A DNA stretch of 64,000 nt, taken from contig CM056744.1 in assembly GCA_029851415.1 (NCBI GenBank), forward strand, positions 101,589,338-101,653,337. The letters run 5' to 3'. The DNA is from Eretmocerus hayati. Taxonomy: Eukaryota > Arthropoda > Insecta > Hymenoptera > Aphelinidae. Position 1 is the first letter of the stretch; the number at the start of each line of letters is the position of its first letter. The translations under genes were made by a program, and so were the position numbers. This document shows, in pieces, positions 9,418 through 45,237 of the stretch. The notes under the pieces are model-generated. The model had not been told where the DNA came from, searched no databases, and saw only the letters and a program-made list of their open reading frames with translations.

Positions 9418-9976
9418 CCATCAAGTTAAATATATAAAACTATCTCTTATAACTAAATAGAAGTGGATTTTTTATTTTTATTCTTTATTATTTAGTATAG
9501 AAGTGGATTGATCATGTGAAAGTATTATACTATATTGATGCACCGCATTTACCATAACGAAAACCTGAACACAGGCCTATGGTGGGGGCCACCATCAAAA
9601 GGCTCCCACCATCGGACGAGCGAAAAATTTTTTAGAGGCTCCGAAAATTTTTCAGAAACTGGAAAAATTTTTTATGCCTTATCTGGGTGAATCCTGATGA
9701 CGCGCGGTCAATCCCTGAACCTACAAGTACGGGAATACAATCGCACCGGGAAATTTTCATTTTATCAATTTTGATTCTCATAAGAAGGATTGCATACCAA
9801 CTCAATGCTCAAATAATCAGACCGACAATGAGGTCGTGGAAAAATCATCTCCAAAACCAAGAGATTAAGTGAGTAAACCCGCAAATATCCTGGCGTTCGG
9901 ACTTAGAATTCTGCCGAGAAAAAAAAGTCACTTCCAAATCCTAGGAGAAGTCCTTCCAAATCATTGAGTGATAATA
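9418..9976. other. 3' flank of the SDR gene
   Basis: This is AT-rich sequence after the SDR stop. No further gene is visible. There is no canonical AATAAA close to the stop; AAATATATAAAAC near 9430 may serve. The stretch 9560-9680 has short internal repeats (GAAAAATTTTTT) of unknown origin. Confidence 0.4.
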
Positions 9977-10769
9977 AGGCAAGTGTGCCTAATTTGCCCC
10001 CACTACTTTTGTTTTACTCGCCATTTCAACTCATCTCTATATTTTTCAACGTAGTTTAGCTCATTTTGTAGCTTGTTTTAAGACCTTGAAAATGAGCTAA
10101 GGTACGTTCAATTTGAACAAATTAGAGCCGAGATATCTTGATTTTCGCGAAAGAAGATTTTTTGCGAGTTTTTGTCAGTGTGTTCCTAATTTGCCCCCAC
10201 AGGGAAAAGAGGCCTATTTTCATGGGATTATACAGGTTTTTCGTGAAAGCGAGATATCTCGGCTCCCAGACTTCCAAATGAGACGTACTTTAGCTCATTT
10301 TGTAGCTTTTTTTAATGCCTTTAAAACTTTTTGAGGTAAATTGGTGCATCTTAATGGACCGAGGGATGAGTTTGGAAAAATACTATAGGGGCAAATTAGG
10401 AACACTGCACTCTTTCTAGTAATATGGGCGTAGAATCGGCTAAAAATCGAATTTTGCAATTCTGCAAAAAGCATTCTAAAGTTGGGACAAAGACAAAGAA
10501 AATGAGTTAAAGCACGTTAAAATTGATTCCATCAATTTTGTTTGGCATAACTTTTAGTGAATAACAAAAAAGAAGTCGGAAGTAGCGAAATCAGTTCTTC
10601 TGTTCTAAGAAAGGCGCGGGTCATCTAGGATCGGTCCAAAACATTTACTTTCTCATATTTTAACGTAACAAACATGAAAAAAATGCGGGGCAAGGTCTGC
10701 GGGCTCGTACATGTGAGAACTTGAATGGGGGCAGATTAGGGAATGGGGGCAAATTAGGCACAGATACCT
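9977..10769. mobile_element. MITE-like element, copy 1 (tips AGGYAAGTGTGCCTAATTTG, TA flanks)
   Basis: The 793 bp element is bounded by TA on both sides (9975-9976, 10770-10771) with terminal inverted repeats reading AGGCAAGTGTGCCTAATTTG and, from the other end, AGGTATCTGTGCCTAATTTG. The motif CCTAATTTGCCCC recurs inside in both orientations (near 10190, 10390 and 10733). Pieces built on GAGCTAAGGTACGT are also inverted inside. A second copy lies at 44442-45235 in the opposite orientation. It has no coding capacity. TA duplication suggests mobilisation by a Tc1/mariner-type transposase (inference). Confidence 0.85.
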
Positions 10770-10771
10770 TA

Positions 10772-12913
10772 TGTTATAACATGTTATCACTCAATATGCG
10801 AAAAAAATGGAGAAAGTTGAGATAGACATGCGGGGCATCAATTTTCAATTTCTGAATTTTTGGGTCCAAAATGTGTGAGTTTTCCCGATAAAACTCATAT
10901 GTATCATTTCGAATCATTTCAAGTTCTGGTTTGGCGTATCCTCATTCAAAATCAGGTATGTGATCTCTATTTTGAACAAGGGTCATAATTCTCACTTCTC
11001 CGATTTAAAGCCGAAACCAAATAGCTTGCTCTTGCTACAAATTGATTTGTACCAGTAAAGGATAACAAAGATCATGACTGAACCAAAAATAAAATTTATT
11101 CAAAAACTTTGTTGCGTACAAATCACAAAGTACAATAAACTCTCTTGATCTCAATGAGATTTTCAAAAACCAATTGGAAAATTGATTCTACAGATCAATT
11201 TTTCCAACAAAAGGTAATCAGTGCTACAAGATATCTACCGCTAGGCGACGCCAGTATCCAGTATTTTTGCATCGACTTACGTTGAAGGAAGCCCGGTTTG
11301 ATGATGCGCCACCGGTGCAAGCAGTAATCATCGGAAGAGCCTCCGCGTTTGTTCAACTAGCGCTCAAGATTTGACTCTACAATAATCATGGCTTTGACGA
11401 GAGATCCGTTGATTGAAAGAGAAGGAGGATAGAGTAACAATCAGTGAGTAATTTCTGTCGAAATTATATCATTTCAAAATAACGTGGAGTTACATGATAA
11501 AATTTTAGATTGAGAACATTGAAAAGTATCCTTATGCTTACTGTTATCATGATATTTTATGCATTTTCTGGAGAAAGGAAATTACTTCTATGAAACTATG
11601 ATGTCGGTATTTTTGAAAGTATCGCATATTATGATAAGTCGTCATTATGTCCTATCATAGTTCAGTTACGTAGAAAATACTAAATCCGAAAGTCTGACGA
11701 ATAATGCGAAATCTTTTGAGATTTTTGGGAAAAGTAAGACAATTTCTACAGCATGGGAAATCTCAAACGAATTTTGTTGTTTGAATGTCGAAGAAAACCG
11801 AAATTCATTAACTTTAAAATAACAACCGGCTTCCAATCCTTCGAAAGCAGTGAACATGAGTTCGATTAACTTCCTCAATATAATTTATACTCGAATGATG
11901 CAGGTTTAAACTTTGAATAGAATGAAATTCATGAGATGATATTAACGATATCATGAGACTAATTTTATCAAAATCCATCTTTGTAAAATTGTATACAATC
12001 TGTCTTTATAGCAGTGAAACAGTCCCTGTAAGATCAGAGCTGATTGAAAAGTAGATGACAACCCGTTTTCAGATTTCAAGGTAGTTTTAAAGGTTGACGT
12101 CATTCAATGTGCCTCGATTTCAGAAAAGATTTCGTTGCGTAAAGATCGCATAGTCGTTCCTATTCACGATATTCGTTCATTCGTGTATTATAGAACGCGT
12201 GCCGGTAGCGAGCTATACAAAAAAAAATTCTGCTGTGATTTATCTTTATTGTTGAATCGTATTAACTTCTAACGAGAATTCTAATTTTCACGTGTCAGGA
12301 CAACGTATAATCGCTGACTTCGGTCGAACATACCTAATTTGAATGCACAAATCGCATGGAAAATGGTTTTCTGCATTTACTTTTGCAAAGTGAAGCTGTT
12401 GACGCATTATTGGAAAAAAGACGTGATAAAGTTGAATGATGATTATTATGGGAGAAGGTTAGAGTGCAAATTTTTTATGAAAATTTTTGTAATATGTGAA
12501 AATGGTTCGGTTTTTTCCTTGTTCTGTATCACATCAAATTTCCACTGACGTGGACTGGTCAAGGAATTAAATCAAGTAATTAATATGCAATCGATTTTTT
12601 TTTCAACCGGAAGAGAGATTGAAGTGGAAGATCTGGTTGAGTAGATTCGTATCCGATTAGGCTCTACACATGTCATTAAAGTAGTATATTCTTCTCTAGA
12701 AACTGTTGAGCCTCGCTTTGCCAAAACTGGAAGAGATGTTCAAGGTTCGTCAGTGGGCCGCATAAAACAACTCGAGAGGTACTTTTGCAAATCTGGCGAG
12801 GTTCCGATCATTTTGATACAGGAATAGTAGAAAAATGCTATTTTTTCTCCATCCATTATCTCAACCATCCCCAACCAGAAATGGATTGGATTAAAGTTCT
12901 AAATATCACCAAT
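10772..12913. other. Intergenic stretch without a supported gene
   Basis: No exon, RNA gene or bounded repeat could be supported on either strand. A GC-richer island at 11210-11400 can be read on the minus strand as a short Ser/Ala-rich peptide next to a GTAAGT, but nothing joins it to other exons. Confidence 0.4.
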
Positions 12914-16184: not shown

Positions 16185-19100
16185 CAAAATGGACAAAGAC
16201 TGAAACAAATTTTGAGAAAAAAGAAGGCATAGACCCGGTCAAGTCATTCCCCGATTTGCGACGCGCAGGTCACACTGAGTACACAATACCCGGCTCAAAA
16301 GATCATCAATTATTCGGAAAATATCGTGGATATCAAATTGAATCTCATTTCCACGTCTCATTGTACACAATTTGGAGAGTCTCCAACAGTCTTCACGCCG
16401 AATCACGCAAAATTGTGCAAAGAATCCACTTGTTTCGCGGGAAAGTTCATGCGATTCCGAATTTTCAAAATGTTTGAAAAATGCCGACAAAATTTTACTC
16501 GTAGAGTAGAGTCTTTTCGGATGAAAAAGTTTCCATGTTGACTTTTATTAGTCACATTCATTCTCGAGTTTGAATTCAAGAATTTCATCGAAATTTCAGC
16601 AATATTGGTGGAATCGGTGAAGGTTATCTATAAATTTTTATTCGCTCCCCAAGTATTTATTGGGACTAATTGAGCCATTCACGAGACCCTGTTATACATA
16701 TGGTTCTGTTTCTCAGAGTCCGTGTTTTTTGATCTTCTACGAAAAAAGACTTCGGCTACATTTAGGCCACGAGTGACCCGGCAACGGTTCGCGCCCATAA
16801 TCACCGACTACCGAATTTTTGGGCCAGCCACCAGCACATGGCCGATCTTGCTCCTCGATAGGGAGCTACCCTTGGAGGGGCCCATCTTAGGCTTTGTTGG
16901 AGCCCAGGGAGCGGGCCCTAAAGCGAGTCACCCACGGGCAGCTCTACCACGACGCCCAGCACTCGCCCATTTCCTAGGTTTTGCGGCTGCCCCGGCATGT
17001 TCCGTGGCCACCGTATGGAGCTGTGAGAATTTCACGACCCGACTGACTTAACTACTCTGTTCTGCAAAAGTCAACCAGTGAAACTCACTGGAAATCCCGT
17101 CGAGATCCGTTCATTGAGCGGATCTGGACTGGATATAAGCAGTAAAAGTTGACTGGTTTCCAGTGAATTTGACTGCTTGACTTCTACCACGGTCGTATAA
17201 ACAGGTCTGGAAACTCCTATTGCGAACATGGTTCCGAATTCCGGGCTCAAAAGTTTCCACTTTCACTCACTTTTCCTCGTGGCACTGCGATCGAGTAGTA
17301 AGTACACCTGGTGATGTTGACAAATCAATCTTATAATGTCAACATCAGTTCCCTAACCTTTGTGTCATGCCGTGTGCGTGTGACCATTAAGTGCCCAACG
17401 AATAATTATAAATCGAAAGAGATTCGGTCAACCTTCGAGCCACCAAAATATTTTGGTCTGCTGTAGTTGCAGTTATGGTTAAAGAAGCTCAACTTAAAGA
17501 AGCTGCGTTCAACACAAAGAGTGTGTGACAGACACTTTGCTGAAGAAGACGTGATTCGGGAAATCATACAACGCAATGCGAGTGGTCGAATTATCGCGGA
17601 GGTACGCGATAATTTCACACACATACACATAGTTTTGATTGTAGCACCATGCGATTGGAAAGCTCATCTTTATTTTTGTTGAACCCAACATTTGGGGGAA
17701 CGAAAGTTTGATAAAATATTTCATCATCAACAGATGGTTCTGATTAATAAGTGAGAATAAGTTGTTAGATCAGCCTTAATCTAATTTCTTGCTTAAACTC
17801 TTCAACGTTACTCTCACAAAATCAATAAATCAACCAATAGATCAGTTATGTTGGCATGTTTACTTTTTTGAACATCATACTACTCGATGGCAGCGCCCCG
17901 CTCACCGCGGTCAACTTTGGCACTACACCTCGCTCCAACCAACCTTTAGCATTGAGTTTCTAGGCCTGTTTATACGACCGTGACTTTTACAGAGGAAGGC
18001 TGTGAAACTGTCGCATCCCAGGGTCAAGACACCTGAGCGAGTCGGCCTTCTTTGAAGAAGCGGAAGGAGCCATTGCAGCTCCGAGCATCATCCTCGGGGC
18101 CAGGTTCCGCCTTATACCAGATTGGGTCTCAAGGCTCGACTGCGGTGTCCCTCCCTGAGGCCGGAGTGTCACGATGACCCGGGGCTCGAAGACCTTCTTT
18201 ACGAGTAGATTCCTGTCTACCGGCCAAAACTCATACCGAGCTAGCGGAGTTGTGATCTGTTGTAGTACGTTTCAAAAATCACCCGGTGGTTGTGGTACCA
18301 CAATTCCAATCCCCGTAAATTATGACTTCAAATTTGGGCTCAAAGTTGACCCGGGGCATATGGGATACTTACAGTGGCCTCTATGGGTCAAATCACTCTC
18401 TTAACCTTCCCGAGTGAACCCCCCTTTTGTGGCAACTCGGAAAGAGTGAGATTCACTCGGGCCCGAGTGGAATTCTCACTCCGAAAGAGTGAAACTCACT
18501 CTTTTCGGAGTTGCCACGAAGGGGGGGTTCACTCGGAAAGGTTAAGAGAGCACGTTAGGTTTAACTCAGGCCAGTCTTTTAAAGTTTGCATATTGATCTG
18601 CTTGATCATAGTAATTTTGCATCGTCATTTTGTTCGAATGCACGGAGTCCTATTTTGTGTATTCGTCATCTACAAAAATAATTTAAGTCAGTTTTCTATA
18701 AGTAAGGGATTCAGAGTATCTCTCGATCCATGAATTCGCACAGGATCACAGTATATCTGTTGGAGTCGTTAAAAAGGCCTTCTCGTGTCAGAAGCTCGGT
18801 CAGGTGGCAGTTTTATTCATTCGTCACATACAATTGATTTCCCGGTATGATTATAGAGTATCGTGAATCGTATATGAAGATATGAAAATTCCATGAATGA
18901 AACATTTGAAGAAAATTTATCCCCTTATATTCTTGCTAATATAATATGATGGCTGATATATCGAACAGTTTTGATCTCAAGAAGTGAATTACGAATTACA
19001 GGAAGTGCAGAAATGGCTGGACGACAGCAAAGACGGATGCATCTACTTTTCATTTGGGTCAATGATACGGATCGAAACTTTCCCGGAACCTATCATGAGA

Positions 19101-21699
19101 GTGTTCTATACAAGCCTCGAAAGCATTGCACCCGTCAGAGTACTAATGAAAGTAGCTAGGCCGCAGGAGCTACCATTTAGTTTACCCTCTAATGTCATGA
19201 CCCAATCATGGTTTTCCCAAGTGCAAGTTCTCAGTAAGTATGAATCTCAAGAATTCAAAGTTTATTGGCTCATAACATCATGGCTTCTCGTTAAAAAAGT
19301 TGGTATGACAATTCATCATGAAATCATGAAGTTGGCAAAGATTGTAAGTGATGAGATAGATTGATAGCCTCATAACGAGTGATTATTCAATAGATCAATC
19401 ATTACGAATGCGCAAGTTCAGTTTAGCGCAAAAAATTGAGGAGATCTTAGATGTTTTTGCAAAGTGGCTATTGAGTGTGGAATCTGAGTAAAAAATGAAA
19501 AGTGATGTGAGTTCAGTTCACATATATATACGCAGTTGTTCTGATAAGTGAGGAAGTATTGAATAATCGAACGCATTTGTGCGTGAATTGAATTCTAATC
19601 ATAACAAATTGAGATGGATCCTATCATAATCTGTCGAGATGTCATCTAAGATGCAACGACTTACCGTCGATGTGAAAAATGATGACAAATTTGCTTCATC
19701 AGTCGAGATATTCTGCCGATTTTTCCATCAACTGCGATGGATGACGCAAGGTACAAATGATGAGGACACCAGGTTTTGATGGAGCACAATAAATTCAGTA
19801 TCATCGAGTTCATTGCAATGGGTTTTCAATTTTAGCTGTCTTAAAACACTGAATCCAAATCCAAAAACTCAGTAACCTAGTTTTTGATTTATCAAAGCAC
19901 ATTTTTCAGTCTCTTTAGTTTTTACCCGTTCTGGAGAAAGTAATAACATTATGACATTGGAAAAAAATATTGAATACCCTTTTCACTCAATCTCGTACGA
20001 AAGGACTGCAATCTAAAATGTTAGCTAAAATCTAAGATTCTTACATTTCAATTCATTCATCAAAGATTCGTCTCTGCTTCACACGAGGCTTCACACCAAC
20101 GATTTGAAAATAGCTCCTATCTTGCACATTCGATCCGCAAAGTTGCGTCAAAATTATGATTATATTTACACCGTAATGATTAGCTTTTGTTCAGAATAAT
20201 GTCATAAGAATTTTCCAAGAGTAACAATAATTAATTATGACAAAAACCTCTAGAGCTAGAGTGTCATAGCAATTTTTCAAAGTTACAAAATTAACATATG
20301 ACGCCCCGGTCAGGAGCAATCTGTATGTTATTTGCCTTTCGAAGGGCGATATTGCTAACGTTCTACCCAAATTTAGCAAATAAAGACTAACTGGTGGTTT
20401 TGGCAAAAAATCTATCTTCGCTCCATAATGATACCTTAGAACTGCGAAAATAGGAAACGCAGAGAGCAGTGGATGGGTTCAGGGTAGAATTCAATTCAGA
20501 AAAATGAGCCTTTTCACCTATATTTTCAATTACGTTGGTGTACATGCGGTCGGTCTCCAAAATTTGTGTTAGCATTTGATTAGCGCATAGTAGAAAATGG
20601 GGAGAAATCAGATGAATTCGCAGCGATTTTGGAAACACCTGACAACAAGAATGAAGTATTCATTAGATGTTTTTCTTCTTGATAAAATGGAAAAAACTAC
20701 AATAATTTTCAATTATTAGTTCTGATATTCTTTGCCGTTTTACGAATAGTTATTGATTTTTTCGTCCCAGAAATTTCTTCAAACTCCAGAGTATGAGGGT
20801 TAAAATGGGATGGGATCGAACTCTAATCTGAAATCCAAATTCGATCGTTTCAGAGCACAAAAACGTTAAAGCATTCATCACTCATGGTGGAATGATGAGC
20901 GCACAGGAAGCAATCTACACAGGTGTACCGATGATCGGTATATCAATTTTTGGTGATCAGCACCTTAATGTCCAAGCAAATGTTGAGAGAGGAATTGCCA
21001 TAGCTGTCAAATTGCATGGCATCACCGAGGAGAAATTGACTTACGCAATCAAGGAAATTATACAGAACAAGTTGTACAGGTGAGCCTCAATGTTCATTCA
21101 GAAAATCAGATGGAGTTTCAAATGGTGAGAGTCGGAATAATGGATCATAAAGTTCGAAAAAAATATCGAAACATGGTGGCTCTTAGTGATTAGTTCAATC
21201 CCAATATCCTTGTACTTCAAAAAATTTGGGAATAATCTTTCATATCACCCAAATTCAAGAGCAGATTTTTTCATATATACCTCAATTTGAGGCTTGCCGA
21301 TGATTTTTTCATGAAATTGATCATCTGTTACTTTTTCCCAGAGAAAAGGCGGAAAAGCTGTCGAAATTATTCAACGACAGACCAATGAAGCCTCTAGATG
21401 CTGCCGTTTTCTGGGTGGAATACATAGCTCGGCATGGAAAAAAGGCGCTGAGGTCACCTATTGTCGATATGCCGTGGTTTCAGGCTAAACTACTCGACGT
21501 CTACGCTTTCCTTCTGATAATTGGCTTCATCATTTTTTCAATTCTTAGAACGGCTTATGATAAAGTATACTCTCTACTCCGTTTACCCGTGAAAAAAAGC
21601 TCACGGTCTAAATCAAAATCTAAAAAATATCGATGGTACCAGCAACTGTTACTCAAAACTAGCCCGGAATGCTCTCTCTATTCTTTCATGGACGATTGA
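13347..21699 (+). CDS. UDP-glycosyltransferase (UGT), complete, five exons
   Basis: Exons 13347-13787, 15590-16021, 19002-19233, 20854-21079 and 21342-21699 join in phase (0, 0, 1, 2) to 562 residues, slightly longer than the usual 500-530. A signal peptide (about residues 5-30, FTILLLLILI) sends the N-terminal sugar-acceptor domain into the ER lumen. The C-terminal half carries the UGT signature around residues 361-404, including AFITHGGMMSAQEA, GVPMIG and GDQHLNV, with the His and Asp/Gln that hold the UDP-sugar. A single membrane helix (about 496-514, FLLIIGFIIFSI) anchors it, leaving a short basic cytosolic tail (KKSSRSKSKSKK). UGTs attach glucose or another sugar to small lipophilic compounds for detoxification, pigment or hormone control; the acceptor cannot be read from sequence. 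One deviation is that the usual W-x-P-Q before the signature reads WFSQ. All four introns contain mobile elements, repeats or simple sequence, or are plain. Confidence 0.95.
14818..15296. mobile_element. Harbinger-like MITE with long G runs, in UGT intron 1
   Basis: The 26 bp terminal inverted repeats read GGTGCCATCC...ATGATATCATGC and, from the other end, GGCGCCATCC...ATGATATCATGC. TAA flanks both sides (14815-14817, 15297-15299), fitting the 3 bp TWA duplication of PIF/Harbinger elements. Inside, TTTGTGACAAAGTGTGACAA followed by 9-14 G occurs twice in the same orientation (near 14868 and 15223). It has no coding capacity. Confidence 0.75.
16137..16180. repeat. (GT)22 microsatellite in UGT intron 2
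   Basis: An uninterrupted GT dinucleotide run of 44 bases. It lies about 115 bases after the 5' splice site of intron 2. Confidence 0.97.
16740..18200. other. GC-rich foreign-looking block in UGT intron 2, split by a P-like element
   Basis: Outside the inserted element (17188-17982), both sides are much richer in G+C than the rest of the intron (for example 16780-17040 and 17991-18180). This suggests an older mobile element or a transferred segment. Its open stretches have no recognisable protein motif. An imperfect inverted pair around 17065-17175 (GTCAACCAGTGAAACTCACT against CCAGTGAATTTGACTG) sits at the left border of the P-like element. Confidence 0.35.
17188..17982 (+). mobile_element. 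P-element-like relic with a decayed THAP zinc-finger exon
   Basis: The 795 bp element has terminal inverted repeats of about 28 bp (CACGGTCGTATAAACAGG and its complement) with CA...TG tips. The flanking 8 bp are ACTTCTAC and ACTTTTAC, a target duplication with one change, matching the 8 bp duplication of the P superfamily. Inside, 17367-17640 carries a broken THAP-like finger: an ATG followed by CAC and an early stop, then RSTFEPPKYFG, a stop, LKKLRSTQRVCDRHFAEED and IIQRNASGR. P-type transposases start with a THAP domain (Cx2-4C...CxxH), so this appears to be the 5' exon of a deleted copy. It is not functional. Confidence 0.72.
18397..18549. repeat. Palindromic foldback MITE in UGT intron 2
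   Basis: The 153 bp sequence folds on itself almost completely: TCTCTTAACCTTCCCGAGTG at the left pairs with CACTCGGAAAGGTTAAGAGA at the right. The arms continue through GGCAACTCGGAAAGAGTGAG-type sequence to a centre at CGGGCCCG. It has no coding content. Confidence 0.85.
19234..20853. other. UGT intron 3
   Basis: A 1.6 kb AT-rich intron. I see no bounded repeat, RNA gene or exon on either strand in it. Confidence 0.5.
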
Positions 21700-35076: not shown

Positions 35077-36549
35077 TCATGCATTCAGAATGAAAGAGAA
35101 TAGCTCTGCATTGCTTAAATTACTCAGAATTTCACGAACCACTACGAGGGGAAGTTCTAACCATTTCAATACATCAAACAAAACAATTTCAGCTCTTTCA
35201 AGGAGACCTTGTCTCATACTACTGAGATGAAATCGATGTTGAATCAATGGTCCATATACTTCAAATTCTTGGAGAATGTTGTCACTCATTTGAATTGCAT
35301 TGATAAATTCTTCACGCTTGGTATATACAGCAATTTGATTGTAATTTTTTGTCAAAAAATCGAAATATGATAGTTCTGCTATCCTCCTTTCTTTCAATTG
35401 CTCAATTTCAGCTTCACACTGTTCTATGTATGAGTAAATTGACAAATAATACTGCATTACCACCAAATCCTTATTCATCATAATCAGGAGCTCTTTCACA
35501 GTTTTCAAATTTTGAAGTGTTATGTAATAATTGGCTGTTATTAACTTAGAAACATGAGTTAAAAGTATTACAGCTCCAATTTTCAAATCAAGTAATGTGT
35601 AGAAGCACTCAAACTCTGAATCAAAGTGTTTTTCATTATTGATTGCTTCGTTGTCGTGATTGCTTTCAGGGAATTCATTGATACGGTCATTTACATAATC
35701 GAGCGGGGTTTTTCCATTGACATCCATGGCATTTATATCTAAATGCATATCCAATAATGCTTGAATAACGGGTACATTACCAACTCTAGCAGCCATGTGT
35801 AGTCCCGTTCTGCCCAACTTATCACATATAGGGCTTCCACCATCATAGCAGCACATCAGTACATCCTTAGTTATAGCAACTATATCTGACTCTTCATTTT
35901 CATTCAAATTACCTCCAACGCTCAAAATATTGACATTTATCAGCTCTATATCCAGCTCTGAAAGCAGTATCTTGAAAAGTTCCATATTGTGGTTTTTTTC
36001 AATCCTCAATTCATCTTGTCCCATATGAAGATTGATGATTTTTGTAATAATTTTCATGGCTTCAGCTTGATTCTCTTTGAAAGGCTGGGTATGTAACAAA
36101 AATGACCTATACCATGTTTCTACACATGGAATCAATGATTTTTGATTCTCCACCAAAGAGATGGCAAAGTCTTGCAGTCCAAGTAACACCGATGACCACA
36201 CCATTGTTGCTTGAATTTTGTCTGAGCTTTTAACAGAGAAACCATGCTTGACCATAGACTTGACGATTCTTTCATCATCTGTAGAAGAGCTGAGTAGGCA
36301 CACGTAGAATTTATCTCTCACTATGTCCATATCAAAATCTGGATTGTACTTCAATAAAAGTTCGACCATTGTGGGAGATCCAGAATCAATAGCTAGTGAG
36401 AAAGGAGTATTGCCTTCATTATCTTTAACATTTACATCGCCGCCTGCGTTGAGTATTGAGGATCCAATTTCAAAATCCCTCATTCTGACAGCCATGTGTA
36501 ACATTGTCTCGCCTGAGGGATTTCCTTGGTTTATGTTGGCTTCTTCCAT
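35077..36549 (-). CDS. Ankyrin-repeat protein with C-terminal PRANC (F-box-like) domain
   Basis: 490 residues in one coding exon. A 3' splice site (TTTTTTCAG, ending at about 36562) just before the ATG implies a noncoding first exon. Ankyrin repeats are readable at residues 12-75 (GETMLHMAVRMRD, NTPFSLAIDSGS) and 245-290 (RTGLHMAARVGN, INAMDVNGKTPLDYV), with degenerate helical repeats between. Residues about 388-490 match the PRANC pattern: ERRIAELSYFDFLT, YTKREEF, EFEVYGPLIQHRF, then an F-box-like end LELPLVVVREILSNLSN. Poxvirus and Wolbachia ankyrin proteins use this module to dock on the SCF ubiquitin ligase; in parasitoid wasps such proteins form a gene family of uncertain job. A cytosolic E3-adaptor function is an inference. 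The frame is intact. It is transcribed divergently from the chimera at 37846. Confidence 0.85.
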   Translation of the reverse strand: MEEANINQGNPSGETMLHMAVRMRDFEIGSSILNAGGDVNVKDNEGNTPFSLAIDSGSPTMVELLLKYNPDFDMDIVRDKFYVCLLSSSTDDERIVKSMVKHGFSVKSSDKIQATMVWSSVLLGLQDFAISLVENQKSLIPCVETWYRSFLLHTQPFKENQAEAMKIITKIINLHMGQDELRIEKNHNMELFKILLSELDIELINVNILSVGGNLNENEESDIVAITKDVLMCCYDGGSPICDKLGRTGLHMAARVGNVPVIQALLDMHLDINAMDVNGKTPLDYVNDRINEFPESNHDNEAINNEKHFDSEFECFYTLLDLKIGAVILLTHVSKLITANYYITLQNLKTVKELLIMMNKDLVVMQYYLSIYSYIEQCEAEIEQLKERRIAELSYFDFLTKNYNQIAVYTKREEFINAIQMSDNILQEFEVYGPLIQHRFHLSSMRQGLLERAEIVLFDVLKWLELPLVVVREILSNLSNAELFSFILNA

Positions 36550-37845
36550 TTTTTAGTATCCTGAAAAAAGATAATACGGTAAACCAAAGTATACGATAAT
36601 TAAACTAATGTGTACATCCTTTGTATTGCTTGCTCAAAATTTATACATTCAAGCAAAAAGAGAAAGAGAGTTGATTGAAAAATGTATAATCAGATTTGTC
36701 ATTAGCACTTAGTGTATCAAATTACACTGATGAAAAACCAACATGAGACGTTCAGGTTAACGAATCTCAACTTACTCTCGGTATAACGTCACTCGAGGAG
36801 AGGAAAAAGCAGATTTAATGATGAGAAATTGTAGACCAATCACTCATACTCACTTATAATTTTCCGAGTGGACTAAGAGTATCAAAACAAAATATTTAGA
36901 TGCTTTGTAAACACTTCAACTTTCATTTATATTATTTATATCTGTCATGTGTTGTGTCAAACACAGTCAAACAGACGACAGACAGACAGAGACAGAGATA
37001 GATGCGCATCGATTGAATGTTTTCTGAAATACCATCTGCAAGTTCACTAGGTATTTTCATTTTCTTCAGTCTGGCTGGACTCTGATTGACTCTGATGCGC
37101 AGCACAATAATAAAAAAAAAATATATATATACAGAATATACAGAATGAAATTTACAGATGAATATTGCTACAGAAAATCATTACATCACATCTGATTGGA
37201 TTCACTTTTCCACTGTCTAAGAACCTCGCGTTATTTGTCATATTCATGCATTCCCAAGGGAGCTGTAAGCTATTGCGACGTCTCATGAGATTTTGAGGCC
37301 CATGTATCAACTTATGATAGAAATTAGATCGCAGGATCTCACTCGAATTATTATTGCGCAATCAAGGAATAATTGATATAGGTGAGGAGATTCGATCTTT
37401 GACTTTGATAGCGTTTGAAATATTTTAATCATCTCATAAATAATAAGGTACATTCTCAACAGCTCGAGACTGGTTTGGTACTTGTCAAATGACTATGAGG
37501 ACATGTTGTGAGCACACCTTATAAAAAATAAAAGCGCGATTCTCACTGTAGTGCGGCTCCTCGATCTCACATTTCCACGCCACAGCTCACCACAGCTGGC
37601 CACAGCTGAAAGCAAAAGGCAGGCGTAAAGTATTGGGGACTTCATCTCACTTCATCTGACTTCATTTTATCATTCCAAGTTGTTTGTTTTGAAATTCCAA
37701 TCGAGAAAATCTTCAATTTCGTCGAATCCGATCAGTGTTTCCAGTTGCCATTACAGCGAGATAGAAAAGCGTTTCTAGTTTGGTTTGTATGAAGCTGGCA
37801 TTTGTTTTGCTAGTGATGCTGTAATTGTTGTCACGAAGCACCAAA
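36550..37845. other. Intergenic region between divergent genes
   Basis: It holds the promoters of the PRANC gene (minus) and the chimeric gene (plus). A short (GACA)n-like run lies at about 36963-36995, and an A/TA-rich run at 37110-37135. No other gene is seen. Both 5' UTRs probably occupy part of it. Confidence 0.5.
37520..37527 (+). promoter_or_regulatory. Possible TATA box of the chimeric gene
   Basis: TATAAAAA, about 320 bases before the start codon at 37846, followed by a GC-richer stretch typical of a transcription start. Position and consensus only. Confidence 0.35.
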
Positions 37846-40800
37846 ATGCGTCCTGGAAGGAAACCAAGGATCAGAAGTGATTTGATTTTTGAAGTTCTGA
37901 GAGAATTTCCTATATTTCAAGAGAACGGTACCTTGAAACCCAGAAAGGATCCAGTATGGGTTGAAGCTCTGAATCGCTTGGATAACCAAATAACTCTACA
38001 CAATTTGTACATATTTGTACATCAAGACCGACATGATATACTACAAAAACTGCTCAAACATAACAATCTCAATGTCCCCTTGAAACCTAAGAGAGCGAAG
38101 AAGAAACCTCCAGCACCCATTTATGATACCAAATGGGATGAGTATGAGTACTATGACGAGCTTGATGGTGAATCCCCATATGAGGGATTAAATGTGATGG
38201 ACTCAATTGTATCAATGAGGAATCAAGCTAAATTTTACAATGTTTTACGAAAAATCTCTGTGGTACCATTTATAGTAACCTATTGGCATCCTGATCAAGT
38301 TACTCTGTGGAATGAATACTCAAAACATGAATCGGTTGTATCTTTAATAGTATTGGATAGCGTAGTATCCAAGATAACTGGAGGTCTGTATGAAACAGAG
38401 AACATTCTACTTTTTGCTCTCTCAGCAAGAGTAGAAACTTCTACCATATTATTCACACAGATGATCAGTGATTCAAGTGATCCTCTGGACTTGGAATTTT
38501 TCCTTACCTCGTGGCTTCAAGATGGTGCGCCTCCACCAGCCCAAATAACTGTTGGATACTCTTACAACCTACTAGATGCAGTATCTTTGGCTTTCAATTT
38601 CTGCTCTTTTGACCAATACAATCTGAGGTATGTTGATGAAACAATTGTTTTGCATGTTAGTCAACACTTGATTAGTGCTACTCTTGAATAAAGATGAATG
38701 GTTGGAGGCTCAGTTCTGGCAAGACTAAAGTGCAAGAATGCCTAAATTGATTATGCTGAAGTCAATCCTGAAATAATTTCTGAAAATTCCTTTTTGTTTG
38801 GGGTTAAACATTTTCAATAATTTTCAAACGTAATCCTCCTAGTGATTGAAAGATTTGGGACCTAAGGAGTCATCTATGATCTAAAAGTTGAACAAGAGTA
38901 GCATTCAACTTATTCACATTTTCATTATAATAATCATTAATAATTTTTGCTTTTCATTACAGGTGTTTCAAATATCTATCAAATGAACTAGAAGAGCTAC
39001 CGTCGACTTTACTTCAAATTGATATAGTGACCCTGATTAAAGTGATCAACCAATGGCCATGTTATGAAAATTTGTTACAAAGTGTCAAAGATTTTTACCT
39101 TTGCAGCATAATGTATTTGAGTACTGTTCAAGATATCAATGTGTTCAGAGAAACAACTGTGACAGTTCTGATCTTATGCCAAAGCCCTTATCTCAATGAA
39201 GCAGCGGAAAGCAGAAAAGGAACTTTATGGGATCATCTCACATCAGACACAATTCAAAAAATGAATCAGCAGTACATTGATTTTATGACTGGAAAAAGTG
39301 TGTCTAAGAGTTTCTCTTACTATGATCCAGTTCGTAATCAAATAGTTGTAAATCCAACTCACGAGCTACATGATTACATTAATGCTTGCAAATTAGAGGC
39401 ATTCAATCTCTGTGATTTCAATACAGAAGTTGAGAGACCTGCTAATGACTTCTATTGCCCCATTATTTTGGAAAATTTGATTCAATTGCTCTCGGAATTC
39501 CCTTCATGGACCCAAATTATTCCAAAGAAAGTCGAGTGCTCCATGTTAGTGTCTACTAATGTTACCAAGCACTTGGCTGCTTTTTCTGGTTTGACAAAGT
39601 TGGTAACTCCTGCTAAGTACTTAGAATATCACATTGGGAAGGTAACAGCAATGAATCAGTTGATGAAGAATATTATGAGCCGCAATAAGAAATATAAGAA
39701 CGATGGCCCTAATAAAAATACTCTGGATAGTGTCAGTGTTTCAGCTAAGCAATCCATCTTGGATCATCAGTATGACAGCAGGATTGAGATCACTATTCCC
39801 AATGAAGAAATAATTGTGGAAGAAGTCAACACACCCACAAATGTTATAGGGATTGCAAATGAAGGAATTGCAGTCATAACAAAGGACATTGAGCCAATTG
39901 CTACAGATGTCACATTAGTGAAGACACCCAATAAAAAAGCAAAAACTGATGCAATATCGGACTTGGATCTACAGAACTTGAAAACCACTGTTAAATCTAC
40001 TCTCCATTTGTTATCAGATTTTGATGTATTTGTTAGAGACACTGTGGAACAAGTTCTACCTGGACAAGAAACATCAATCTGTAGAACTCTCCTAGATTGT
40101 TGCACAGAAATGAAGAAGTATGAAAAATTTTTTGGAATGCTGGTTGAGGTAATATGAACATCAATATTGGGATAAATCACTCATTTTTTTTATTTTTATT
40201 CTATTTTATTTAGGAAAATCGAACGGGCAACAAGGCCCTATGTACATAGATAATATAAAGATTCTTTGAGAAATATCATCTCAGATAAGAATAACAACAT
40301 ATAGAGATATAAATTATCAAGGAAAATACATAATTATCAAATAAATCATAAATTATTATTCAGCAAATGAAAAATTCTAACTAACAACAAAATTTCCATC
40401 TCTATGGGTTATGAAGACACAATTTTGTTCTTCACCAAAAACTTAAAATTGGGACTATCATGATTTTGAACCACATGGTTTGGAAGCTTATTCCATAGTT
40501 TTATACAACGACGAAATGTCGACTCATGTTTTCCATGTGCTTAAATCTTCACTATATAGTAAATACTTTGATCTTCCATACCGTTCTATTTCAAGTTTAT
40601 GTATGACATTTTTCAACTCAGAGTTCGAATTAGTTCTGGAAATTTCTTCAGTTTTCGAAGATTCAAGACTCGTAATAGTAGAAAGCATTAAAAAATATAC
40701 TCGTCAATGTTTCAGCCATTGGACAGTCCTCGAAATTTTCCACAAATCAAAGTATTAGAACAAAATAATACACATTATCTACTCTTTTTCTCACCACAAT

Positions 40801-41689
40801 TGGACATTCTCAATCAAGAAATCGTCAGCAAATTAACATGTATGTGTTCTTTCAGAAATTTTGCTACGAAAGTGATGCCATTGCCTGCTCCTTTGCTAAG
40901 ATGTTTGGAGACATTTATGTCACTCTAGAAGTACTTGAAAAAAACGAGCTCAAAAATATCACAAGATTATTCGCGTACCTCCTATCATCTGATTCCATTT
41001 CATGGGAAATTCTCTCTGCCTTGAAAGTGAATGAAAAAGCTATGACAAATGCTAAGAAATCATTCTTGAAAATTCTTTTGAATGATATGTCAGAAATTAT
41101 GAGCCCTCAGAAGTTGGAAGAAAGGTTCTTGAATGTGTAAGCATATTTATTGTTTTTTATATTCAAAATTTCTCTCCCATATTATATGTAGAATAATCTC
41201 ATTTGTATCTGTTTCCATAGAGGCCATAATTCATCATATGAGGGTCTCTTCCCCTTTATCAATGAGAAGGACTCACGTTTTGCTCAAAACTTTTACAAAT
41301 CTATTGGATTGAGAAATCTTGCGTAAGTTGTAACATACAAGATTGGATCATCATACTTCTTCTTCACTGAAATCTTATATTTTTGTTCCAGAGATTTATT
41401 TAGAGATGATTATAGGCAAGAGAAGTATGCTCTGATGTCTGGAGATCTACGTCCGCCCGTTCTCAAGAGAAAAAAAAATGAACCCGTTCTCAAACGAGTC
41501 GGAAGTGACTCTAGTATATCCTCTAACTCATCATGTGAATTCCTCGTTGAATTAAAGTAATGAAGAATCGATGAAGCTCTATTTTTAAATTCTGTAGTAT
41601 GCTTTAATATTAACTTGATTTTGTTTTCCAGGGTATCCAAGAACCATGGCAAAAAAATCGAAACGAAAAAAGTTTTCAAAATTAAATGA
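37846..41689 (+). CDS. Chimeric protein: inactive transposase-like region fused to a CWC22-type MA3 domain
   Basis: Exons 37846-38627, 38963-40148, 40856-41136, 41221-41322, 41392-41556 and 41632-41689 join in phase to 857 residues. If the AA|GTAATG donor in exon 5 is ignored, a stop at 41558-41560 gives 839. Residues 1-80 (MRPGRKPRIRSDLIFEVL, FVHQDRHDIL) form a basic N-terminal domain, followed by an acidic linker. Residues about 131-482 follow a transposase family common in insect genomes (TYWHPDQVTLWN, SWLQDGAPPPAQITVGYS, VSLAFNFCSFDQYNLRCF, EFPSWTQIIP). Residues about 597-790 are an MA3 domain like that of the spliceosome factor CWC22: LLDCCTEMKKYEKFFGML, NITRLFAYLLSSDSISWEIL, EGLFPF, RFAQNFYKSIGLRNLADLF. 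The transposase end and the MA3 start share one uninterrupted exon. The MIF4G domain of CWC22 is absent. A nuclear role is likely from basic NKKAKTD and KRKK stretches; function is unknown. Confidence 0.8.
40180..40560 (-). mobile_element. 5'-truncated LINE (non-LTR retrotransposon), 3' end
   Basis: On the minus strand it reads FRRCIKLWNKLPNHVVQNHD followed by NFKFLVKNKIVSS and a stop, the usual C-terminus of a LINE reverse-transcriptase protein. GGGCCTTGTTGCCCGTTCG and an AATAAA-type tail near 40190 follow. It lies antisense in intron 2 of the chimeric gene and matches the longer copy at 50270-52450. Confidence 0.75.
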
Positions 41690-41975
41690 TATGGATTGAC
41701 CGAACTGATACTTTTATGGACGATCATCTCATTATTAGATGTTGAAGAACCGCACTTATTCTTTCGTATCTGCTCAAAATTTTATATATTGTACTCTGCT
41801 CTGACGCACCAAGTTTGCCAATTCGTGTGTCATAAAAGAGTGCCAAACTTTTCAAAATCTTCAACACTTGTAAATATGTCTAGCTTGTACATTTTTATCC
41901 TTACATAAGATAGACTAAACAATTTTGTAATGTTAGAATTTGAATTTTTGGCTATCAAATTGAATTACCAGCAGG

Positions 41976-42200
41976 ATGATTAGTGATTATGATGAAAAGC
42001 AGTGTAAAACGTCATACATACCCCCCAACCACGGCACAGATTTGGATTCCCTATTACAGAAAAGCCTTCCTTTGTGCTTTTGCTTGATCTTTATTGATAA
42101 GAATGATGAATTTGACCCTACTGTATTGATATCCAATATTAGAAAGAATATTGTAGACATTCGAACACTGCAGGCTTTTATTAGATATGTCTCTACATAA
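41976..42200 (+). CDS. Short open frame after the chimeric gene, doubtful
   Basis: An ATG frame of 74 codons (MISDYDEKQCKTSYIPPN at the start) lies in what should be the 3' UTR of the chimeric gene. It has no recognisable motif. It could be an alternative last exon or chance. Confidence 0.2.
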   Translation: MISDYDEKQCKTSYIPPNHGTDLDSLLQKSLPLCFCLIFIDKNDEFDPTVLISNIRKNIVDIRTLQAFIRYVST

Positions 42201-42251
42201 GGAGTTTCGGAGTTGTAATGTAATGTGAATTATATTTATGAGAGTATTGAG

Positions 42252-42257
42252 AATAAA
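42252..42257 (+). terminator. Polyadenylation signal, probably of the chimeric gene
   Basis: AATAAA about 560 bases after the proposed stop codon, followed by T/GT-rich sequence. It is the first good signal downstream on the plus strand. Confidence 0.45.
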
Positions 42258-42259
42258 GA

Positions 42260-44441
42260 ACGTTCAACATGATATTATTGCCCTCCTCTCGACGATTTTT
42301 GTATGTACCTGTTTAGCCACATTATGGGTGAGCTATATTCTGCCACATAGAATTTTTTTCCTGGAAATCGGACGGCAATTTTGACGACTCATCCCACGAA
42401 ATACCTTACAGATACTTTCTTTTCAAATTAAGAAGTGACCAATATCATTCCGATCAAACTTGATCATCATTGAAATTACGAAGAGAATGTAATTAGAATC
42501 AAATATTTTATAAGCAAGAATCGAGGTCATTGATACCGAGATACCACGTTTCGTCACCCAACTTTTCGTAAAGAAATGCTGTGTCATCACTGCAAAAAGT
42601 TCTGAAGAAGATCTTGAACGAGTCGAGTTCATTCATAATCAGTTGGTTTACTTGCAAAATTGAAATCAATTTTCCGGTGCTAACTATTGACACTGGAAAA
42701 TATATTCCCAAATGAATATTTTTCAGTACATGATGACACGTCTCATCACTATTCACGGCTCTCGATACTTGTGCTTGCCACTGGCTCGTCTAAATTTCCC
42801 GGGTCTTAGGAGAAGCTACGGAAAATTTCCAAATAATCTATAGCCACGGAATCTTTCCTGACTAAAAATATTGGTTACACTTCAATCAAGGGCCTAAGAA
42901 TTAAGTTGAAAAACTTTTCTGACAATGTTTCCTATGTCTATGCTATCAGGAAATTCTAAAACTCCAATCTCGATTTTTTAAGTATTGAAGGCGTCATAAT
43001 CCAAGAATAGCCATCACAAACATAATAATATTGATGAAGAGTTAAGGTATTCGTCACGTTATATATTATTTTGGGGTCACAACATTATCATAGTCGTAAG
43101 CTTTCAAGAGTAAAATAAAAATGAGAGCAGGTGTGTACGGGAAAAAAGTGGGCCGAGGAGGAGCTTGCGGCAGTGCAAGGGGTATAGAGCAATAACCGTC
43201 TCAATCTCAAGCTTTTCAAGCTCATCTCATGCTTATGTCGCGCGTCTCTAATGGCTCAGCTATGCGTCAAACTCTATACCGACTCGGAAATATTTATAAA
43301 GCTTCTGGCTTTTTTTTTCGTCATGCTCGTAAAGTGTAACGCGTACTTTTTTCACACATACACTCGCACATATGTGCAACCGTAAAAGTGCGGCGATGAA
43401 AGCTCAGACCGATGACTCTTCAAAAAATCTTTAGTGTGTCTAAAAATCTCTGGTAAGAGTAAAAGTACTATAAAAGCAGAATGCTCTAGTTGCATTAGGA
43501 ATGATGTATGCGAGTTTTTGGAGAAGTGAATATGAAGCTTTGGAAGTCGCCTGAAAGTGCGTCGTCTTGTTGAAAGTGCACGATGTGGGTTATATCATGT
43601 ATATATGTTCTTTTGAGGTGGTTCTCTTTGTTCACACTTTTATGAGTTTCCTTTTGATCAATCACACATTTAGAAGAATACATTTGCAAAGGTTTAAAGT
43701 CAAAAATGTATATATACCTACCACTGTGAGGGATTCTGGAAAATTCCGACTATTCTCTTTTCTGATTCGAAGGTATTTCCAAAGAGTCATATTTTTAGTT
43801 TTCATACATCACTCGAACCGATCATGAATACGTATTGAAAGTTTTTAATGAACTTTGCCTTTAGCAGCAAACAAAATTACGACCTTAAAACGATACAGTG
43901 ATTCCGGTCCCCTCATACCTATCCATCTCCTGCTGTAGACAGCCGATCTTCGACACTTGAATACACTACGACGCATAATAGACAGGAAAATCTCCCCATG
44001 GGTAGCTATGCACCTCAAATTTTAATAATCCAATTGACATAATCCACCACTTTGCTGATCAAATTTGAAGTCTCAGATCGCGCATTATTGAAGTATTTGG
44101 TTGCAGTGGATAAAATCTATGCGGAAAAGAGTCTACGATTAGTTGCCGATCCGTGGGAATCATTTTTGAGTAGAAATGTCCGTTCCGTCCCTGCCAATTC
44201 CGTCCCCCCTCCGCAACCTCTTCTTAAACTTTGCATAACTTCATCAAAAAGTTCGGGAAAATGCATGTTTTCATTGTTTATTTATGCCTTCCCCGAATTT
44301 TTGAACAATAATTCTTAATTAATATCAATTATTGGATGTGCCACCTATCATTTGAGCTTAAAATTGGACGGTTTGGAAGAGTTTGGTCACTTACACCTAG
44401 AGGGAAGCGTCTTATCGAAGCTTACTTACCTGACTCATATA
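42260..44441. other. Intergenic stretch without a supported gene
   Basis: A minus-strand frame at 42756-42508 has acceptor-like sequence before it (GAAATTTAG) but no motif I can name. The rest is AT-rich with short T runs. Nothing else is supported. Confidence 0.35.
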
Positions 44442-45235
44442 AGGTAACTGTGCCTAATTTGCCCTCATTCCCTAATTTGCCCCCATTCAAGTTCTCAAAT
44501 GTATGCACCCGCAGACCCTGCCACGCATTTTTTTTGATGTTTGTTACGTTGAAATATGAGGAAATAAACGTTTCGGAACGATCCTAGATGACCCGCGCAT
44601 TTCTGACAACAAAAAAAGTGGTTTTCGGTACTTTCGACTTCTTTTTTGTTAGTCACTAAAAGCTATGCCAAACAAAATTGGTGTGATCAATTCCAACGTA
44701 CTTTAATTCATTTTGTTTGTCTTTGTCCCAACTTTAGAATGCTTTTTGCAGGATTGCAAAATTCGATTTTTAGCCGATTCTACGCCCATATCACTAGAAA
44801 AAGTGCAGTGTTCCTAATTTGCCCCTATAGTCTTTTTCCAAACTCGTTCCTCGCTCCATCAAGATGCATCCATTTACCTCAAAAAGTTCTAAAGGGGGTA
44901 AAAAAAGCTACAAAATGAGCTAAAGTACGTCTTATTTGGAGGTCTGGGAGCCGAGATGTCCCGATTATACGAAAAACCCGTATAATCTCATGAAAATAGG
45001 CCTTTTTTCCTGTGGGGGCAAATTAGGAACACACTGTTGGAAACTCGCAAAAAATCTTCTTTCGCAAAAATCAAGATATCTCGGCTCCAATTTGTTGAAA
45101 TTAGACGTACCTTAGCTCATTTTGAAGGTCTTGGAACAAGCTTCAAAATGAGCTAAAGTACGTTGAAAAATATAAAGATGAGTTGAAATGGCGAGCAAAA
45201 CAAAAGTAGTGGGGGCAAATTAGGCACACTTACCT
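44442..45235. mobile_element. MITE-like element, copy 2 (tips AGGTAASTGTGCCTAATTTG, TA flanks)
   Basis: 794 bp, flanked by TA (44440-44441, 45236-45237), with inverted tips AGGTAACTGTGCCTAATTTG and, from the right, AGGTAAGTGTGCCTAATTTG. It is the reverse-oriented sister of 9977-10769 and shares its internal CCTAATTTGCCCC and GAGCTAAAGTACGT modules along the whole length. Confidence 0.88.
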
Positions 45236-45237
45236 TA

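What the first reader, a model, noticed from the sequence alone, without database searches (positions are those of the whole stretch)
37846..41689. Transposase-like protein fused in frame to a CWC22-type MA3 domain
Seen: one 395-codon open exon (38963-40148) holds both the C-terminal part of a transposase-like region and the first helices of an MA3 domain, and all further exons stay in phase to complete that MA3 domain. Known: CWC22 is the spliceosome factor that brings eIF4A3 to mRNA for exon-junction-complex assembly, and a CWC22 paralogue (Mdmd) is the male determiner of some house flies. Inferred: a duplicated CWC22 3' half was captured by, or captured, a transposase gene, giving a new nuclear protein that may bind DNA or RNA and touch the splicing machinery while lacking the MIF4G half. 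I know of no described gene of this kind.
Basis: partly seen in the sequence, partly recalled or inferred. Interest (0 to 1): 0.92.

Follow-up and report, generated by a model that had tools for sequence, protein, structure and literature searches.

The report
Dead-transposase–CWC22 fusion gene in wasps
An old gene of chalcid wasps was made by joining a disabled jumping-gene protein to the back half of a copied splicing factor (CWC22), and related fused proteins occur in several wasp families, so it looks like a real gene of unknown job rather than a prediction error.

Summary
The finding is real. The six-exon model (37846-41689, 857 aa) equals the deposited Eretmocerus hayati protein QAD02_009408. 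Fused relatives occur in Copidosoma, Ceratosolen (deposited as "CWC22 homolog"), Trichogramma kaykai and unnamed sources; four of those read through the transposase part and the MA3 start without a break and stop just past the exon-2 end.

Residues 1-500 match open frames of Mutator-like elements (MULEs) in the same genome. One lies in a 26.8-kb element with ~390-bp inverted ends, a perfect 9-bp target duplication and two divergent ORFs; its degenerate ORF is the best match. The catalytic D, D, E columns of the MULE proteins hold I, G/P and H/Y in the fusions.

The MA3 half comes from CWC22 by DNA-level copying: three of three introns inside it share codon and phase with the wasp's separate CWC22 gene. 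It folds like CWC22 MA3 but keeps only 20-31 of 68 CWC22-invariant residues and lacks MIF4G, which weakens a role at CWC22's place in the spliceosome.

Best reading: a settled host-transposase fusion, probably a DNA-bound adaptor. Origin well supported; function inferred; no expression data seen.

The parts
37846..38627 (+). Exon 1: N-terminal helical domain, basic patch, first part of the dead DDE-like core
   Evidence: splice model; alignment with MULE ORFs
37867..38070 (+). Residues 8-75: four-helix N-terminal domain shared with MULE A- and B-type proteins; likely DNA-binding (inferred)
   Evidence: block pLDDT 77-87 over residues 11-80
38083..38115 (+). Residues 80-90: basic patch (within KPKRAKKKPP), possible nuclear localisation signal; a basic stretch stands there in the 5 other rows printed too
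   Evidence: the reading as NLS is by eye
38245..38627 (+). Residues 134-260: RNase H-like (DDE) core remnant. Column of the first D holds I168; D171 lies three residues on. Column of the second D holds G237 (38554-38556)
   Evidence: strands 165-203 in a low-confidence part of the model
38963..40148 (+). Exon 2: end of transposase-derived region (column of the catalytic E holds H), linker and first MA3 helices in one open exon
   Evidence: P0008-P0011 read through the same parts
39669..39956 (+). Residues 497-592: fast-evolving linker in which the MULE/CWC22 junction lies (16-30% identity over residues 491-592 to the five other rows with a whole MA3)
39957..40148 (+). Start of CWC22-type MA3 domain (residues 593-656)
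40856..41136 (+). Exon 3: MA3 middle; its 5' intron is phase 0 as in CWC22
41221..41322 (+). Exon 4: MA3; flanked by phase-2 introns at the same codons as in CWC22
41392..41556 (+). Exon 5: end of MA3 and serine-rich tail; its 3' intron (phase 2) does not match the next CWC22 intron (phase 1)
41504..41554 (+). Residues 822-838: tail motif SDSSISSNSSCEFLVEL, similar in Copidosoma, Ceratosolen and Trichogramma; SUMO-interaction-like (by eye)
41632..41689 (+). Exon 6: basic C-terminal end (KKVFKIK), similar in Ceratosolen and Trichogramma

Best explanation
SHOWN by sequence: the gene is an old host-transposase fusion of chalcid wasps. Its first ~500 residues are homologous to MULE proteins of the same genome, by BLAST score most to the degenerate second protein (B) of a two-gene MULE. 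Its MA3 part (residues 593 to about 800) derives from CWC22 by DNA-level copying with introns. The catalytic triad columns are changed, so transposition chemistry is not expected. The frame has stayed open across wasp genera and the gene was multiplied in Eretmocerus. INFERRED: MULEs are known to pick up host gene fragments, so a MULE probably took the CWC22 fragment in behind its B gene, the MA3 domain replacing the protein's own C-terminal part (protease-like in several relatives), and the joined gene was fixed. INFERRED, less sure: it acts as a nuclear adaptor. The transposase N-terminal domain binds DNA, perhaps MULE ends or host sites derived from them; the rest of the transposase core gives dimers; MA3 and the serine-rich tail recruit a partner, most likely to silence or regulate the bound DNA.
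For: Fused relatives: 43% identity over 871 columns in Copidosoma, 45% over 646 in Ceratosolen, 38% over 92% of the query in Trichogramma kaykai. P0008-P0011 read through the junction. Three of three MA3 introns match CWC22 in codon and phase. 15 of 15 ORFs taken from 14 other loci match P0001 by pairwise BLASTP at 1.5e-17 or lower, best 3.2e-34 to ORF B (some of the 15 are near-copies of each other). MULE identity: inverted ends, 9-bp TSD, D, D and E in every A-type ORF that covers the column, one sub-threshold Pfam MULE hit. NG86 dN/dS 0.10-0.25 in both halves between the intact copies. Fusion clade 99/99; seven A-type proteins split off at 98/96. ORF B as query finds fusion exon 1 back at 2.1e-17 (C2:89.79 Mb) and 3.3e-11 (window). 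Gene capture by MULEs: abstract start of PMC6446971, passages of PMC13359780.
Against: No expression evidence for this gene was seen. DNA binding is not shown; the model has mean pLDDT 54, pTM 0.32, and about 24-41 per block over residues 82-282. YN00 gives higher ratios for P0002-P0003: 0.27 in the transposase part, 0.47 in MA3. No element ends are recognisable at the window gene, so capture by a MULE cannot be read there. The unrooted tree does not by itself make B rather than A the donor, and L025 falls on the A side (84/81). Two of five E. hayati copies are decayed and the two intact C2 copies lack the tail motif as deposited. The fourth fusion intron does not match CWC22. ORF B's own C-terminus was not shown to be a protease: L020's matches only L025's (1e-6), which matches L026 A's weakly (1e-4).
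Confidence: 0.55

Rival explanations
1. A splicing-side regulator: the fused MA3 still enters the spliceosome or competes with CWC22, for instance as a dominant-negative or gene-specific splicing factor in the way of the house fly Mdmd.
For: MA3 is clearly from CWC22. In the human B-AQR spliceosome the CWC22 MA3 domain helps bind BUD13 together with PRP2 and PRP8 (PMC10208982 passages).
Against: Fused MA3 keeps 20-31 of 68 residues shared by four CWC22 proteins; the wasp's CWC22 keeps 61. The stretch roughly matching the yeast repeat needed for Prp2 keeps 16 of 48 cells. No MIF4G, without which human CWC22 lost spliceosome binding in vitro.
Confidence: 0.15
2. Two neighbouring genes (a MULE relic and a CWC22 3' fragment) merged only by gene prediction.
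For: The two halves have different origins; no cDNA was seen.
Against: The junction lies inside one exon here and is read through in P0008-P0011; other wasp genera carry the fused protein; both halves show dN/dS below 1.
Confidence: 0.03
3. A still mobile MULE variant that carries a captured MA3 domain, rather than a settled host gene.
For: Five copies in E. hayati on two chromosomes. An 800-bp inverted pair at 90% (window 9975-10772 and 44439-45237) flanks a 34-kb stretch that holds the gene.
Against: That pair has no TSD by the test made and encloses other genes too; copies diverged (dS 0.70 to 1.9); triad columns changed in the rows that cover them; introns kept.
Confidence: 0.08
4. A special form of the best reading: a repressor of the MULEs it came from, acting at their ends and kept by conflict with the element.
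For: ORF B, its best TE match, is itself degenerate at the triad and sits beside the transposase gene in the element; stretches with MULE-like ORFs are present in near-identical copies in this genome.
Against: Target sites unknown; no small-RNA or ChIP data.
Confidence: 0.25

Closest known systems
Host-transposase fusion genes (term in PMC8700633 passages; GTF2IRD2 and CSB-PiggyBac appear in its reference list)
   Same: Transposase-derived domain joined in frame to a host domain, conserved, immobile as far as seen
   Different: Donor is a MULE protein with a changed triad; host part is a spliceosome factor's MA3 domain; lineage is chalcid wasps
CWC22 (pre-mRNA splicing factor)
   Same: MA3 domain fold and three intron positions
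   Different: No MIF4G found; most CWC22-invariant MA3 residues changed; transposase-derived N-terminus
Mdmd of the house fly (CWC22 paralogue; named in PMC7257214 passages; domain details recalled)
   Same: A duplicated CWC22 that gained a new role in insects
   Different: Mdmd is recalled as keeping MIF4G and MA3 with no transposase part; no link to sex was tested here
MULE transposases of arthropods (PMC13359780: abstract and passages seen)
   Same: N-terminal domain and core; that paper names E. hayati among species with complete MULE copies
   Different: Fusion has changed triad columns, lacks some 170-180 residues between the N-terminal domain and the core, and gained MA3
MUSTANG genes of plants (named in PMC8700633)
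   Same: MULE-derived host genes
   Different: No host domain fused that I recall; plants

Membership tests
Host-transposase fusion gene | Coding region homologous to a DNA transposon protein | tested here: met
Host-transposase fusion gene | In-frame fusion to a host domain | tested here: met
Host-transposase fusion gene | Conserved between species under purifying selection | tested here: met
   conservation; selection, measured between E. hayati copies only
Host-transposase fusion gene | No transposon ends at the locus | tested here: inconclusive
   four short chance-like pairs in 36600-43000; one 800-bp inverted pair far out (9975-10772 / 44439-45237) without TSD
Host-transposase fusion gene | Transcribed as one mRNA | not testable with these tools
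   no reads held; the genome paper's annotation pipeline used RNA-seq (PMC10482854 passages), which does not prove this gene
Active DDE transposase | Complete DDE triad | tested here: not met
   first-D column I in 6 of 6 fusion rows covering it (D171 three residues on, so this one is uncertain), second D G or P in 9 of 9, E column H or Y in 11 of 11
MULE superfamily (element around L026) | Inverted ends and 8-11 bp TSD (lengths recalled) | tested here: met
   389-column inverted match at 96.9%; 9-bp TSD CTGGCTGAT
MULE superfamily (source proteins) | Pfam MULE PF10551 above cut-off | tested here: not met
   1 of 13 MULE-like ORFs scanned hits at E up to 0.1, with 16.2 bits against 27.6
CWC22 | MA3 domain | tested here: met
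   Pfam MA3 38.3 bits against 23.2
CWC22 | MIF4G domain | tested here: not met
   residues 1-593 have no such PDB hit, no MIF4G in the Pfam rows of P0001, and align with MULE proteins
CWC22 | Residues shared by CWC22 MA3 domains | tested here: not met
   20-31 of 68 kept
Mdmd-like sex determiner | Sex-limited expression and effect on sex-determination splicing | not testable with these tools
   no expression data

The most novel reading that the evidence does not exclude
A MULE-derived DNA-binding protein that brings a CWC22-type splicing module to chosen genes, so that chalcid wasps control splicing of nascent transcripts, perhaps in sex determination or against MULEs, by DNA sequence.
Probability: 0.1. 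Interest if true: 0.88.

Novelty: new variant of a known kind. Interest (0 to 1): 0.62.

Why it matters
It is a clear case in insects of a transposon protein and a spliceosome factor fused into one long-kept gene, with relatives of both parents still present in the same genome and a donor-type element recognisable by its ends. It shows DNA-level capture, introns included. It also corrects an annotation: the Ceratosolen 'CWC22 homolog' P0005 is this fusion, its deposited model starting inside the transposase part. A CWC22 copy has already become a sex determiner in the house fly, so a second CWC22 derivative in wasps is worth a functional test.

Tried and rejected
Pfam on single exons gave only sub-threshold MA3 hits and a weak SF1-HH hit, which no other member of the alignment repeated. 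PDB search with residues 1-593 found nothing relevant. Structure prediction left residues 82-282 unresolved, so the RNase H fold rests on sequence alignment, not on the model. Scans of viral and prokaryote contigs, on two peptide patterns each, matched 58 and 53 stretches, none a relative. I expected the PRP2/BUD13-side repeat of MA3 to be specially conserved; it is not (16 of 48 cells; the mapping of the yeast repeat is approximate). YN00 failed for many pairs; where it ran it gave higher ratios for P0002-P0003 (0.33 overall). dS above 1 is saturated. The MA3 census gave 5 matches at E up to 0.1: 4 over the cut-off in 3 places (C1:71.18, C2:13.34 and the CWC22 gene at C2:173.74 Mb, twice) and one weak at C4:36.02 Mb; a control rang in 1 of 14 genomes below the cut-off. 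The fused genes are not listed there, being split by introns, so it does not count them. The 800-bp inverted pair around the gene was looked at as possible element ends: no TSD, no copy in the other fetched loci. One paper search on chalcid phylogeny gave no usable date, so no age is claimed.
Full report
WHAT IS THERE. The window lies at G000 C4:101,589,338-101,653,337. The spliced frame 37846-41689 gives 857 residues, all introns GT-AG, and equals QAD02_009408 of Eretmocerus hayati, whose contig has the same length as C4.

THE FUSION IS OLD AND SHARED. With the MA3 part as query, 5 of 683 scored candidates passed E 1e-3: the window protein, two E. hayati paralogues, Ceratosolen solmsi P0005 and Copidosoma floridanum P0006. 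P0006 (857 aa) aligns with P0001 over 871 columns at 43% identity, tail included. P0005 (deposited as 'CWC22 homolog') aligns from residue 206 on at 45%. A profile search found 13 proteins among 7989 scored candidates: besides these five, Trichogramma kaykai P0007 (38% over 92%), two more E. hayati proteins, and five from unnamed sources. From memory the genera belong to Aphelinidae, Encyrtidae, Agaonidae and Trichogrammatidae; these families stand under Chalcidoidea. P0008, P0009, P0010 and P0011 read through the transposase part and the MA3 start and stop 2-8 residues after the codon where exon 2 ends here, the first of these residues being V in all four, as when a GT donor is read on; P0004 stops just where exon 1 ends. 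I saw these five as proteins, not as DNA. Identity to P0001 is alike in both halves (P0006: 0.47-0.50 and 0.46; P0007: 0.41-0.45 and 0.36), with a fast linker. No Nasonia protein was listed, but only the candidates sharing most words were scored, so absence is not shown.

THE MA3 HALF CAME FROM CWC22 WITH ITS INTRONS. E. hayati has a separate CWC22 gene at C2:173.74 Mb (L013). One upstream exon of it matches the MIF4G region of human CWC22 (5mqf chain T, residues 226-333) at 5.9e-44. In its MA3 part three introns fall at FFGLLAG|RFC (phase 0), in the codon after KLKD (phase 2) and in the codon after GGL (phase 2). The fusion has introns at FFGMLVE|KFC (phase 0), in the codon after RFLN (phase 2) and in the codon after RNL (phase 2): three of three the same (aligned columns). 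A retrocopy is thereby excluded. The next intron, beyond MA3, is phase 1 in CWC22 and phase 2 in the fusion, so the tail's origin is open. Among the 27 places of the exon-2 search this gene is the only one matched by the MA3 part alone at a site without the transposase part.

THE OTHER HALF CAME FROM A MULE. The exon-2 search gave 27 places at E up to 1e-3: 11 in the fusion family or CWC22, and 16 remote ones at 22-34% identity in open frames of 247-1173 aa. I fetched 20 regions, covering 15 of those 16. TBLASTN with P0001 matched all 15 remote loci, E 5e-7 to 1.5e-31 for the best piece of each, mostly within residues 1-500; L025 reached 6-691 at 22%. Pairwise BLASTP of P0001 with 15 ORFs from 14 of these loci gave 1.5e-17 or lower for 15 of 15, best 3.2e-34 for ORF B of L026 and 9.6e-25 for ORF A beside it; L016-L018 and L024-L025 are near-copies, so the 15 are not independent. 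On the alignment the triad columns read: A-type ORFs D in 6 of 6, D in 8 of 8, E in 7 of 7 that cover them; fusions I in 6 of 6, G or P in 9 of 9, H or Y in 11 of 11; B-type ORFs and L025 C or L, D or E, and G, Q or D. D171 of the fusion lies three residues after the first column and could be the old D after a small shift; it is N in both intact C2 copies. L026 A ends in a Pfam UCH match above its cut-off, L023 and L015 below it; L014 ends in a Peptidase_C48 match just above its cut-off.

THE DONOR-TYPE ELEMENT. Around L026 a 26.8-kb element (C2:127,927,272-127,954,048) has inverted ends matching over 389 columns at 96.9%, flanked by a perfect 9-bp direct repeat CTGGCTGAT, as for MULEs (TSD length recalled). 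Its two ORFs above 200 aa, A and B, are divergent. In some searches, B-type places at C2:127.94, C2:2.90, C1:106.10 and C4:60.45 Mb each have an A-like match within 10 kb in divergent orientation (the one at C2:2.90 Mb is a 994-aa frame seen only as a weak match); one at C4:55.46 Mb has one 26 kb away; fragments at C3:50.85-50.87 Mb and a 24% match at C1:34.88 Mb have none listed. On the tree seven A-type proteins are split from fusions and B-types by a 98/96 branch, and the fusion clade has 99/99; the tree is unrooted, L025 joins the A side at 84/81, and L025 and L023 are long branches. The fusion shares with L020, L025 and L026 B the lack of some 170-180 residues between N-terminal domain and core. 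From score, missing region and changed triad I take a B-type protein as the likelier source.

COPIES AND SELECTION. E. hayati has five copies: the window's; C2:58.4 and C2:89.8 Mb, which look intact; C2:98.6 and C2:101.7 Mb, which show frame changes and stop codons inside matches and, for the second, no match to exons 3-5 in the fetched stretch. P0003 lacks about 58 N-terminal residues. NG86 dN/dS: P0002-P0003 0.24 over 722 codons (transposase part 0.21, MA3 0.25; YN00 0.33, 0.27, 0.47); P0001-P0002 0.19 over 792 and P0001-P0003 0.15 over 722, with saturated dS. The two decayed copies also give 0.22 against P0001, as expected if decay is recent, so the ratios alone do not prove present function.

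WHAT THE MA3 STILL DOES. In the fold search 20 of 488 PDB matches have E up to 0.001; the first 23 rows are spliceosome entries, whose chains I take to be CWC22. Yet the fused MA3s are 32-44% identical to the MA3 of E. hayati CWC22, which is 71% identical to the human one. Of 68 positions shared by human, Chlamydomonas, S. pombe and a thermophile (9l5s), E. hayati CWC22 keeps 61 and the six fusions 20-31. At the 61 positions that all five share, retention is 93 of 186 cells for hydrophobic residues or glycine and 53 of 180 for polar ones: the fold is kept, much of the surface is not. In PMC4482076 (section 19 read, other passages seen) CWC22 lost spliceosome association in vitro when N-terminus and MIF4G were removed. 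I therefore favour a new partner for MA3 over the old one, without proof. The tail motif SDSSISSNSSCEFLVEL recurs in Copidosoma, Ceratosolen and Trichogramma as a serine run followed by a short hydrophobic-acidic core; it looks like a SUMO-interaction motif by eye only.

NOVELTY. Searches for CWC22 with transposase and fusion (5 papers), CWC22 with Nasonia (13), CWC22 with parasitoid and transposon (0), MA3 domain with transposase (3) and CWC22 with Chalcidoidea (2) showed no such gene in titles or abstract starts. Passages of PMC7257214 mention plain CWC22 duplications in Braconidae. Of PMC13359780 I saw the abstract and passages: its main text does not hold 'CWC22', and it names E. hayati among species with complete MULE copies. 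The library lacks most subscription journals. I file the gene as a new variant of host-transposase fusion genes.

Noticed in passing
G000:C2:127927272-127954048 (L033, L026, L032): A 26.8-kb MULE with ~390-bp inverted ends, a 9-bp TSD and two divergent ORFs of one family: A with D, D, E and a UCH-like end, B degenerate. Similar B-A pairs seem to recur at C2:2.90, C1:106.10 and C4:60.45 Mb.
   Followed up: partly
L016, L017, L018 (C1:195.35, C2:18.76, C3:127.80 Mb): Three stretches 99.8-99.9% identical over 16-19 kb, with a MULE-like 593-aa ORF; a 915-aa frame weakly matching ORF B lies about 11 kb away at the first two sites.
   Followed up: partly
window 9975-10772 and 44439-45237: An inverted pair of about 800 bp at 90% identity enclosing 34 kb with the fusion gene; no TSD found and no copy in the other fetched loci.
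   Followed up: partly
window 35077-36552 (-): Open frame of 491 aa with ankyrin repeats and a C-terminal PRANC domain (26.7 bits, cut-off 25.8) next to the fusion gene.
   Followed up: no
window 2564-7620 (+): LTR-retrotransposon-like ORFs: DUF7041, then RT, RNase H and integrase domains, with weak protease match.
   Followed up: no
window about 18975-21696 (+): Exons of a UDP-glucuronosyltransferase gene; the first match is below the cut-off, the second above.
   Followed up: no
[quoted passage not shown]
   Followed up: yes
P0008, jgi source, longest contig 47,028 bases: A fusion fragment that by eye is close to the Ceratosolen protein, in a JGI-sourced record; probably insect DNA in a metagenome.
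   Followed up: no
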